NCBI RefSeq assembly: GCF_021531475.1
Contig: NZ_JADYTX010000024.1
Span: forward strand, 1 to 33,380
Source of the DNA: Fusobacterium perfoetens
GTDB taxonomy: Bacteria; Fusobacteriota; Fusobacteriia; Fusobacteriales; Fusobacteriaceae
Reading direction: 5' to 3'
DNA length: 33,380 nt
In this document: one piece after another, positions 1,414 to 33,207 of the stretch
Layout: every line of letters starts with the position of its first letter
Numbering within the stretch: position 1 is the first letter of the stretch
Program-made: the position numbers and the translations under genes
Notes under the pieces: generated by a model
What the model was told of the DNA's origin: nothing
What the model saw: the letters and a program-made list of their open reading frames with translations, nothing else
The model's database searches: none

Positions 1414-1506
1414 AATTCAAGTATCCTCCTTAAAATAAGTTTTCATTAATAATATCACTAATTGAATTTATTTGCTAGTGAACAATTAAAAAAATTTTTT
1501 GTTCCT

Positions 1507-1555
1507 AATAAAAAAATAAAACACCCTACACTCTTTAAAAGTTGTAAGATGTTTT
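1507..1555 (-). terminator. Intrinsic terminator of pssA
   Basis: On the minus strand a 13-bp stem with several G-U pairs (arms 1543-1555 and 1518-1530) is followed by a T-rich tract. It lies just after the pssA stop codon. Confidence 0.75.
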
Positions 1556-1579
1556 AAAAATCTTGTTCGTATATATTTT

Positions 1580-2314
1580 TTATTCTTCCTCTTGAGTTTC
1601 TTGTTCCTCTTGATTTTTTATCTCTTTTCTGTATAAGTGATATTGGAATAAATTATAAATTATATAATAGAATGAGAATATAAATAAACTATATTTTAAT
1701 GTTGCAAGAACACAGATTACAAAAATTCCCATATATTTTTTAGGTACAAAATTAAATACTTTGTCTGGAGTTAAGAAAGTAATAGTAGATACCATTAGTA
1801 TTGCAGAAATTATTGTTATAGAGATAAAGAACTCTGCATTAAAGAAATTGTATCCATATTTTTCTAAAGTTCTACAAAGTAATAAATAAGATATTATAGA
1901 AGCTGCCCCATTTGGAATAGGCATTCCACTAAAATCATCTTTTTCATTAGAAGCGACTGTAACAACATTAAACTTTACAAGTCTCATAACTCCACAAAGA
2001 GCATAAATAAATGCAACAGGGATTGCCATTGTTACAAATCTAGGATATTCCGATAAGATAGAATAAACTAAGATACTAGGAGCTATACCGAATGAGATAG
2101 CATCTGAAAATGAGTCAAACTCTTTTCCAAATTCACTGAAGGCATCAAACTTTCTAGCAGCTTTTCCATCTAATCCGTCACACACCATAGCTAAAAATAT
2201 AAACCAAATAGCATAAGTATAATTAGATTTTATTGATGCAGTAATACTTAAGTAACCAAGAAGCATATTCGCAGCTGTAATTCCATTAGGTGCTAAATAT
2301 TTTTTTTCAACCAT
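1580..2314 (-). CDS. pssA: CDP-diacylglycerol--serine O-phosphatidyltransferase
   Basis: 244-residue integral membrane enzyme that joins CDP-diacylglycerol and L-serine to make phosphatidylserine, the precursor of phosphatidylethanolamine. The CDP-alcohol phosphatidyltransferase signature is complete: D46-x2-D49-G50-x2-A53-R54-x8-G63-x3-D67-x3-D71, the metal- and CDP-binding residues. The PNGITAAN stretch at 9-16 and the run of hydrophobic helices afterwards are typical of the Gram-positive-type PssA. The C-terminus ends in a Gln/Glu-rich tail (KNQEEQETQEEE). Start is ATG with a GGAAGTGAT ribosome binding site. No phosphatidylserine decarboxylase is in view. Other CDP-alcohol transferases (PgsA) share the motif, but the Asn/Thr-rich N-terminus favours PssA. 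Confidence 0.87.
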   Translation of the reverse strand: MVEKKYLAPNGITAANMLLGYLSITASIKSNYTYAIWFIFLAMVCDGLDGKAARKFDAFSEFGKEFDSFSDAISFGIAPSILVYSILSEYPRFVTMAIPVAFIYALCGVMRLVKFNVVTVASNEKDDFSGMPIPNGAASIISYLLLCRTLEKYGYNFFNAEFFISITIISAILMVSTITFLTPDKVFNFVPKKYMGIFVICVLATLKYSLFIFSFYYIIYNLFQYHLYRKEIKNQEEQETQEEE

Positions 2315-9025: not shown

Positions 9026-9060
9026 AGCACAAAAACCGTAAACAATTTACTTTTGTGCAT
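9026..9060 (-). promoter_or_regulatory. Riboswitch expression platform hairpin
   Basis: After the aptamer the leader can form a long hairpin, GCACAAAA-GTAAA-TTG-TTTAC-GG-TTTTTGTGC. There is no proper U-tract after it and the ribosome binding site (9015-9021) lies 5 bases outside it. The segment 9036-9051 can instead pair with aptamer bases 9076-9091, so the two folds exclude each other. Confidence 0.55.
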
Positions 9061-9068
9061 TTTTTAAT

Positions 9069-9133
9069 GCCTTATAGTAAACTATTTACGGTAGTCTGTA
9101 GAAACGTCCACCCTATTGTGAACATATATAAGC
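9069..9133 (-). promoter_or_regulatory. Purine (guanine-type) riboswitch aptamer
   Basis: Minus-strand sequence shows the purine aptamer parts in order: P1 (GCTTATA with TATAAGGC), P2 GTTCAC/GTGGAC with a loop ending in GG, the invariant J2/3 GTTTCTAC (9105 to 9098), P3 AGACTA/TAGTTT closed by the canonical loop CCGTAAA, and J3/1 ACTAT. The loop-loop partners (GG in L2, CC in L3) are present. The specificity base equivalent to position 74 is C (complement of g9077), predicting guanine or a related 6-oxopurine rather than adenine. L2 looks one nucleotide shorter than in the B. subtilis xpt aptamer. Confidence 0.88.
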
Positions 9134-9145
9134 TCATTTCCTTTT

Positions 9146-9175
9146 AGAATATCATATTTTTACAGTTATTGTCAA
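9146..9175 (-). promoter_or_regulatory. Promoter of the riboswitch-MATE transcript
   Basis: Minus strand TTGACA (9175-9170), 18-nt spacer, TATTCT (9151-9146). Transcription would start near 9138, just before the aptamer P1 stem. Confidence 0.8.
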
Positions 9176-28780: not shown

Positions 28781-28917
28781 TATTTATTTTTACTAAAAAA
28801 CAATTTTTTCACATATTTTTATTTATACACTTATCGCTATTACTGACTTTAAATTTCTAATATAAAACATTAAACTTTGTTTTTTGTACTTTTATTGAAT
28901 TTTTTCATATTTAAAAC

Positions 28918-28946
28918 TGTACAAATCAAATTTTTTATGCTATACT
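28918..28946 (+). promoter_or_regulatory. Promoter of the candidate small RNA
   Basis: TGTACA (28918-28923, four of six consensus -35 bases), 17-nt spacer, TATACT (28941-28946) preceded by TGC, an extended -10. Confidence 0.6.
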
Positions 28947-28952
28947 TATAAC

Positions 28953-29037
28953 ATAAGGGATAATTTTCAAAACCCCATACTCCCTACGAAGTAATGTTAT
29001 CAATGTTTCGCCCGCATTGGTAACGTTACTTTTTTTT
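28953..29037 (+). ncRNA. Candidate small regulatory RNA, about 85 nt
   Basis: Between the divergent patB-like promoter and the 3' end of the EF-G-like gene there is a plus-strand promoter, then a C-rich single-stranded stretch (CCCCATACTCCCTACG, 28973-28988), then a long intrinsic terminator. No protein gene fits between them. The EF-G gene has its own terminator pointing the other way, so the plus-strand one must belong to something else. C-rich loops such as CTCCC are typical of sRNAs that pair with ribosome binding sites. I do not recognise it as 6S, SRP, tmRNA or RNase P RNA. A nine-codon ORF (MLSMFRPHW, from 28994) lies in it but has no ribosome binding site. Confidence 0.55.
28989..29037 (+). 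terminator. Strong plus-strand terminator of the candidate sRNA
   Basis: 17-bp stem with two G-U pairs (28989-29005 with 29015-29031), loop TTTCGCCCG, followed by eight Ts from 29030. Confidence 0.88.
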
Positions 29038-29044
29038 ATTTTCT

Positions 29045-29083
29045 AAAAAACAAAAGAGAGATGCCTTTTTACAGGCACCCCCC
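29045..29083 (-). terminator. Terminator of the EF-G-like gene
   Basis: Minus strand 11-bp stem GGGGGGTGCCT/AGGCATCTCTC with three G-U pairs (29083-29073 with 29066-29056), loop GTAAAA, then TTTTGTTTTTT. Confidence 0.87.
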
Positions 29084-29107
29084 TTGTTCTGAGGTTATAC
29101 TATGATA

Positions 29108-32049: not shown

Positions 32050-33207
32050 ATGAATAGAGAATATTATTTTGACCATAGTGCCACATCAAACCCAAAACCA
32101 AAAATAGTTATTGATACAGTTTTAGAGGCAATCACTACTTTTAATGGAAATCCAAGTAGAAGTTCTTATAAAAAAAATATATCTTTAGATAGAAAAATTT
32201 TAGAAGTCCGTGAAAAATTAGCAAATTTTTTTAATATATCTACCCCTTTACAGATAGCTTTTACCAAAAATTCAACTGAATCTCTTAATTTTGCTATCAA
32301 AGGTTTAGGATTTGAAAACTGTCATATTATAACATCAGTTTTAGAACATAACTCTGTCCTTAGACCACTAAATTATCTAAAAGATAATAAAGGAGTGGAG
32401 ATTTCATATATAACTCCTTCTAAAGATGATAAAGAGGTTATAAAAAATATAACTTCACTTATTAGAGAAGATACAAGAGCTATTGTTATAAATCATATAT
32501 CAAATGTCACTGGTTATATTTTTAATATAAAAGAGATTGGAAAAATTGCAAAAGATAATAATCTTATATTTATAGTTGACGTCTCTCAAAGTGCAGGTTT
32601 TTATCCAATAGATGTTACACGAGATAATATTGATATTTTATGTTTTACTGGTCATAAATCTTTAATGGGTATTCAAGGAATAGGGGGGATTTATATTAGA
32701 GAGGGGCTTTCTATCTCTCCAATTATTGAAGGGGGAACTGGTAGTTTTTCAAAACTTCCAAGACAACCTCTGAAAATGCCAGAAATGTTAGAGGCTGGTA
32801 CTTCTAATACTCCGGGAATATTAAGTCTTGGTGCTGGTATTGATTATATAAATTCTATTGGTCTAGAAAATATTAAAAATCATAAAACTAACTTAGTAAA
32901 TTATTTTATAAAATCTCTTTCTGATATTCCAGAAATAATAATATATGATAATTTCAACATAGAAAGAGGACCTGTTGTGGCTTTAAATGTAAAAGATATT
33001 CCATCTTCTGAACTTTCGGATATTTTATCTGAAGAATTTAATATTTGCACAAGAGGTGGGTTTCATTGTGCTCCTCTAGCTCATAAATATTTAGGAACTT
33101 ATGAAGATGGAGCTGTTAGATTTTCTTTTGGATATACCAATACTATTAAAGAAATTGATTATTGTATCTCAGCTTTAAAAGAAATCATCAGTTTTTTCTA
33201 TAAATAA
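32050..33207 (+). CDS. Cysteine desulfurase (NifS-like, class V aminotransferase)
   Basis: 385 residues. PLP-dependent removal of sulfur from cysteine to form an enzyme persulfide and alanine. Markers: FDHSATSNPKP (7-17), LEHNSVLRP with the PLP-stacking H100, D177, the Schiff-base lysine K203 in TGHKSLMG, and the catalytic C340 in RGGFHCAPLAHK. The short active-site loop and stand-alone context suggest the NifS-like group found in Firmicutes/Fusobacteria rather than IscS or SufS in a cluster; no scaffold gene (iscU/sufU) follows. Sulfur may go to tRNA thiolation or Fe-S assembly; inferred. Start ATG has TTGAGGT 8 nt upstream. Confidence 0.9.
   Translation: MNREYYFDHSATSNPKPKIVIDTVLEAITTFNGNPSRSSYKKNISLDRKILEVREKLANFFNISTPLQIAFTKNSTESLNFAIKGLGFENCHIITSVLEHNSVLRPLNYLKDNKGVEISYITPSKDDKEVIKNITSLIREDTRAIVINHISNVTGYIFNIKEIGKIAKDNNLIFIVDVSQSAGFYPIDVTRDNIDILCFTGHKSLMGIQGIGGIYIREGLSISPIIEGGTGSFSKLPRQPLKMPEMLEAGTSNTPGILSLGAGIDYINSIGLENIKNHKTNLVNYFIKSLSDIPEIIIYDNFNIERGPVVALNVKDIPSSELSDILSEEFNICTRGGFHCAPLAHKYLGTYEDGAVRFSFGYTNTIKEIDYCISALKEIISFFYK

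What the first reader, a model, noticed from the sequence alone, without database searches (positions are those of the whole stretch)
28918..29037. Free-standing plus-strand promoter-terminator unit: candidate small RNA with a C-rich, RBS-like seed
Seen in sequence: an extended -10 promoter, about 85 transcribed bases with the single-stranded run CCCCATACTCCC, and a 17-bp intrinsic terminator with eight Ts. It lies between a leftward promoter (patB-like) and a leftward terminator (EF-G-like), so neither gene explains it. Established: sRNAs with CU-rich loops often mask Shine-Dalgarno sequences. I do not recognise it as a known housekeeping RNA.
Basis: partly seen in the sequence, partly recalled or inferred. 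Interest (0 to 1): 0.68.

Follow-up and report, generated by a model that had tools for sequence, protein, structure and literature searches.

The report
Conserved C-rich Fusobacterium small RNA gene
The spot holds what is very probably a free-standing gene for an 85-base regulatory RNA, whose C-rich core is unchanged in six related Fusobacterium genomes and which most likely switches off messenger RNAs by covering their ribosome-binding sites; it is a new RNA of a well-known kind.

Summary
Confirmed, and strengthened by comparison. 28918-29037(+) holds an extended -10 promoter, a predicted ~85-nt RNA (28953-29037), the run CCCCATACTCCC and a 17-bp terminator with T8; neither flanking gene explains it. 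Five of six other genomes of the genus carry one strong copy (83-101 bits; G001 lacks it); 91 further genomes of the phylum hold no convincing one. The 16-mer AACCCCATACTCCCTA is identical in all six copies. The -10 box keeps its 7-nt distance from the predicted start. In two genomes the unit lies at an unrelated locus (NhaC-like/SSS symporter) with its own promoter, so it is an autonomous gene. No Rfam family fits. Most likely it is a trans-acting sRNA whose CAUACUCCC complements GGGAGUAUG (Shine-Dalgarno plus start codon), repressing translation in the manner of FoxI or LhrC. Targets remain open: predicted pairing in G000 did not exceed shuffled C-rich seeds, and the one candidate tested across the genus (an alanine-symporter-like gene) is not conserved. 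New RNA family, known kind. Transcription was not tested.

The parts
28918..28923 (+). -35-like hexamer TGTACA (weak, not conserved between copies: TGTACT, TAGTCA, TTGAAA)
   Evidence: other copies read
28938..28946 (+). extended -10 box TGC-TATACT; TATAAT in all other copies, always 7 nt before the predicted start
28953..29037 (+). predicted sRNA, about 85 nt
   Evidence: sequence; fold z -5.7; covariance model hits in six genomes
28956..28960 (+). AGGGA, predicted to pair with UCCCU 28981-28985 (5' hairpin; G000, G005 and G003 copies)
28971..28986 (+). invariant 16-mer AACCCCATACTCCCTA, the proposed main seed; CATACTCCC is the complement of GGGAGTATG
28989..29031 (+). intrinsic terminator hairpin, 17 bp; stem sequence varies between copies while pairing is mostly kept
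29006..29014 (+). terminator loop UUUCGCCCG (UYUCGCCCR over all copies), proposed second C-rich recognition site
29030..29037 (+). T8 tract of the terminator
29054..29085 (-). separate terminator of the leftward EF-G-like gene; not part of the sRNA

Best explanation
The element is an autonomous gene for a trans-acting, base-pairing small RNA of about 85 nt. Housekeeping RNA polymerase starts at A28953 from an extended -10 promoter and stops at the T8 terminator (inferred from sequence, supported by conservation). The C-rich stretch CCCCAUACUCCC pairs with GGGAGUAUG-like sequences over the Shine-Dalgarno and start codon of several mRNAs and blocks initiation (inferred). The C-rich loop of the terminator hairpin, kept while its stem changes, may serve as a second contact (inferred). 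The 5' AGGGA may partly cover the UCCC half of the seed in some species (predicted).
For: Five more copies in the genus at 83-101 bits, one strong copy per genome, none convincing in 91 other phylum members. 16 of 16 seed columns and 6 of 7 loop columns invariant against 8 of 17 in the 5' part and 19 of 36 in the stem. Stem 89% paired although varying, with changes on both sides at two pairs; slid controls at most 63% paired. TATAAT-type -10 box and 7-nt spacing to the start kept in all copies, the TG extension in most. The unit lies beside fusA2/patB in four genomes and between an NhaC-like antiporter and a sodium/solute symporter in two. In Fusobacterium nucleatum about 89% of primary start sites have a strong -10 and weak -35 box, FoxI and FoxJ use cytosine stretches on fomA mRNA (PMC11005410), and FoxI pairs around the fomA start codon (PMC12153356).
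Against: No transcript was measured. Predicted pairing with 1,892 translation starts of G000 is no stronger than for shuffled C-rich seeds (98 vs 91 starts at -15 kcal/mol or better). A perfect 11-bp match over the start codon of an alanine-symporter-like gene is not kept in the orthologues of G003, G005 or G002. The 5' hairpin is not kept in G006. The number of pairs changed on both sides does not exceed column shuffles.
Confidence: 0.72

Rival explanations
1. The RNA is transcribed but acts by binding a protein or another RNA (sponge or decoy) through the invariant C-rich stretch and loop, not by antisense pairing with mRNA starts.
For: The invariant block is longer (16 nt) than a minimal seed and no conserved mRNA target was found.
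Against: Exposed C-rich elements in a linear stretch and a terminator loop are a layout known from mRNA-pairing sRNAs of low-GC bacteria, e.g. LhrC (PMC4132741).
Confidence: 0.14
2. It is a terminator, leader or antisense remnant tied to the neighbouring genes (bidirectional terminator for the EF-G-like gene, or patB leader).
For: In four genomes it lies directly between fusA2 and patB.
Against: Wrong strand for both genes; the EF-G-like gene has its own terminator at 29085-29054(-); the next sizeable plus-strand gene starts 3 kb on at 32050; the whole unit recurs at an unrelated locus in G004 and G006.
Confidence: 0.04
3. It encodes a very small peptide.
For: An ATG or TTG frame in the terminator stem reads M-S/F-R-P-H/Q in the copies (read by eye from the sequences).
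Against: Only 9 codons from the first ATG in G000, no Shine-Dalgarno just upstream, start buried in the terminator stem, frame length not kept; the invariant C-run lies outside it.
Confidence: 0.03
4. A conserved DNA element (e.g. a protein-binding site) that looks like a transcription unit by chance.
For: Promoter-like matches are as frequent as in shuffles.
Against: One strong copy per genome, stem pairing kept while its sequence changes and the loop is kept, promoter spacing kept.
Confidence: 0.06

Closest known systems
FoxI (sigma-E-dependent sRNA of Fusobacterium nucleatum)
   Same: Trans-encoded fusobacterial sRNA with a cytosine stretch in a linear region; represses fomA by pairing around the start codon (PMC11005410, PMC12153356).
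   Different: FoxI has a sigma-E promoter; here the promoter is of the TGN-TATAAT type. No convincing copy of this RNA was found outside its genus.
FoxJ (~156 nt, upstream of ylmH, F. nucleatum)
   Same: C-stretch in a hairpin loop as proposed seed; terminator-bounded sRNA (PMC11005410).
   Different: Length, locus (der - foxJ - ylmH - 4.5S RNA) and sigma-E promoter.
LhrC of Listeria monocytogenes
   Same: CUCCC in a single-stranded stretch and in the terminator loop, able to bind the Shine-Dalgarno region of lapB (PMC4132741).
   Different: Multicopy, different sequence and phylum; this RNA has one strong copy per genome.
RepG of Helicobacter pylori
   Same: C/U-rich terminator loop as targeting site (PMC8295292).
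   Different: RepG reads homopolymeric G-repeats; here the longest invariant stretch lies upstream of the terminator.
RsaE and other UCCC-motif sRNAs of low-GC bacteria
   Same: UCCC motif proposed to block translation initiation (discussed in PMC4132741).
   Different: No Rfam match; shared motif only.

Membership tests
Stand-alone bacterial sRNA gene | own promoter and intrinsic terminator, conserved as a unit | tested here: met
Stand-alone bacterial sRNA gene | independence from neighbouring genes | tested here: met
   two unrelated loci
Stand-alone bacterial sRNA gene | detected transcript of the predicted size | not testable with these tools
   no RNA-seq available
UCCC/C-rich translation-blocking sRNA class | conserved UCCC-containing stretch, exposed | tested here: inconclusive
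   conservation met (invariant in six copies); exposure mixed: CCCCAUAC open, UCCC half predicted paired in G000, G005, G003 and mostly in G004, open in G006
UCCC/C-rich translation-blocking sRNA class | conserved pairing with translation starts of target mRNAs | tested here: inconclusive
   no excess over shuffled seeds; the one candidate tested across the genus is not conserved
FoxI/FoxJ | sigma-E-type promoter | tested here: inconclusive
   promoter is TGN-TATAAT type, but the fusobacterial sigma-E motif itself was not available to test
FoxJ | synteny der - foxJ - ylmH - 4.5S RNA | tested here: not met
   neighbours are fusA2/patB or NhaC-like antiporter/SSS symporter
FoxI/FoxJ | sequence homology | tested here: inconclusive
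   model R1 finds nothing convincing outside the genus among 98 phylum genomes; FoxI/FoxJ sequences were not at hand
Any Rfam family (sbrA, RsaD, Prevotella-2 and the rest) | score above the gathering cut-off | tested here: not met
   best 23.3 bits vs 72.1; sbrA 17.3 vs 45

The most novel reading that the evidence does not exclude
A genus-specific global regulator with two conserved reading heads: a linear anti-initiation seed matching Shine-Dalgarno plus start codon (GGGAGUAUG) and a C-rich terminator loop, acting in a phylum whose model species lacks Hfq and ProQ, possibly with a 5' segment that gates the seed.
Probability: 0.2. Interest if true: 0.6.

Novelty: new member of a known kind. 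Interest (0 to 1): 0.42.

Why it matters
The functionally studied fusobacterial sRNAs met here, FoxI and FoxJ, are from F. nucleatum, a species reported to lack Hfq and ProQ (PMC11005410). A short, single-copy RNA with an invariant 16-nt core in another Fusobacterium lineage gives a clean case for asking how such bacteria run antisense regulation and whether terminator loops serve as seeds there.

Tried and rejected
Rfam at gathering and at E <= 1: nothing near a cut-off. Weak model hits G012:C68 (35 bits, in a stretch of repeated CTCCCTC units), G000:C34 (28.6 bits, a structured RNA of another architecture) and G003:C118 (27 bits, contig edge) were judged not homologous. Exact 16-mer matches in viral contigs and pattern matches in three other bacteria are not homologues by the model. 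Genome-wide target scan: no excess over shuffled C-rich seeds. Alanine-symporter candidate: pairing -21 kcal/mol in G000 but -8 to -10 in G003, G005 and G002. trkA (G002, G005), feoB (G003), recN (G002) and an RpiR-like regulator (G002, G005) show good pairing in one or two genomes only, as far as looked. The region upstream of the symporter gene in G001, G000, G002, G003 and G005 holds no copy. Sequence search of the literature: only three unrelated papers, on mice and the honey bee. The two papers that I expected to hold FoxI's sequence are not in the library.

Full report
What is there. The plus strand at 28918-29037 carries TGTACA-17-TATACT with a TG before the -10 box, then about 85 bases of predicted transcript, CCCCATACTCCC at 28973-28984, and a 17-bp hairpin followed by eight T. 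The RNA folds far better than shuffles (z -5.7). The promoter hit by itself is no rarer than in shuffled sequence (18 vs 19.5), so the case rests on comparison. The flanking genes, a PatB-family C-S lyase and an EF-G family protein, both run leftward, and the EF-G-like gene has its own terminator at 29085-29054(-). The next sizeable plus-strand gene starts at 32050.

Conservation. The window lies in G000, a 2.0-Mb genome. DNA search found the element in five of six other genomes of the genus. A covariance model built from five distinct copies scores 102.6, 100.7, 100.7, 95.6, 87.8 and 83.4 bits on the six copies, which match by construction; among the 91 other genomes of the phylum searched, only G012 gave a hit (35 bits, judged unrelated). 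The search of many genomes used stricter filters, so a diverged relative could have been missed. G001 of the same genus lacks it. The only named copy is NZ_JARHZE010000092.1, 'Fusobacterium sp. isolate cluster1_bin.39', apparently the same contig as G003:C39 (same length and position).

Where it is conserved is informative. The 16-mer AACCCCATACTCCCTA is invariant in all copies; the terminator loop reads UYUCGCCCR in all; the 5' part (8 of 17 columns invariant) and the stem (19 of 36) vary more. Aligned by eye on structure, G000 and G006 differ at three stem pairs on both sides (A-U to G-C, G-C to U-A, A-U to U-A); the tool's count on the model alignment finds two such pairs and 89% of cells paired, against at most 63% when slid, though the number of pairs changed on both sides is no higher than in column shuffles with so few sequences. 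An ordinary terminator has little need to keep its loop, so the loop may have a function (inference; 6 of 7 columns is suggestive, not conclusive). The -10 box (TATACT here, TATAAT elsewhere) ends 7 nt before the start purine in all copies, while the -35 region differs. This fits the promoter type reported for F. nucleatum, a pronounced -10 and weaker -35 box (PMC11005410).

Autonomy. In G000, G002, G003 and G005 the unit lies between fusA2 and patB. In G004 and G006 it lies between a gene of the NhaC antiporter type and a sodium/solute symporter followed by lysA. The promoter travels with it. The region upstream of the symporter gene in the other genomes and in G001 holds no copy. It is therefore best read as a gene in its own right.

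Mechanism. The heart of the seed, CAUACUCCC, is the exact complement of GGGAGUAUG, a Shine-Dalgarno-like sequence next to a start codon. In F. nucleatum FoxI represses fomA by pairing around the start codon (PMC12153356), and FoxI and FoxJ use cytosine stretches (PMC11005410). LhrC of Listeria has CUCCC in a linear stretch and in the terminator loop (PMC4132741); RepG of Helicobacter uses its terminator loop (PMC8295292). By analogy the RNA most likely represses a set of mRNAs at initiation. In G000, G005 and G003 a 5' AGGGA is predicted to pair with UCCCU; in G006 it is not, so this gate is not a conserved feature.

Targets. About 98% of G000 was fetched and 1,892 starts, called by a simple script, were scanned. 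Strong pairings are no more numerous than with shuffled seeds of the same composition, as may be expected when any C-rich RNA pairs with Shine-Dalgarno sequences. A perfect 11-bp match over the start of a sodium:alanine-symporter-like gene (named from its sequence, not by a family search) is not kept in the orthologues of the closest genomes. TAGGGAGT within 14 nt of an ATG occurs 4-12 times in genomes with the RNA and not at all in G001, which lacks it, but those counts include the RNA itself, are small, and the reversed control gave 4 in G001. No target is claimed.

Membership. By layout it resembles the broad class of C-rich, translation-blocking sRNAs. No Rfam family fits. It is a new RNA family of a known kind.

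Noticed in passing
L098 about 1420-1680 (+), G000:C34: A structured, leader-like stretch with a promoter-like TTGACT...TATAAT, a closing stem TAGAAACT/AGTTTCTA and ACAACCCCAGAG; no Rfam match near a cut-off. Possibly an undescribed leader RNA.
   Followed up: partly
L098 278-365 (-), G000:C34: SAM riboswitch (S-box), 68.7 bits against a cut-off of 44.4.
   Followed up: no
window 9055-9151 (-): Purine riboswitch aptamer, 56.8 bits against a cut-off of 37.
   Followed up: no
window 28880-28925 and upstream of the copies in L002, L005, L006: GTAC-containing words (TTGTACTTTT, AAACTGTACAAAT, AAACAGTACAAAT) recur upstream of the sRNA promoter at differing distances; could be a regulator's binding site or chance.
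   Followed up: no
L097 1501-1571 (-), G012:C68: Repeated AGCTCGAACTCCCTCTAAATAGC / AGCTCAAACTCCCTCTAAATC units before a hairpin followed by T-rich sequence; drew a weak model hit (35 bits).
   Followed up: partly
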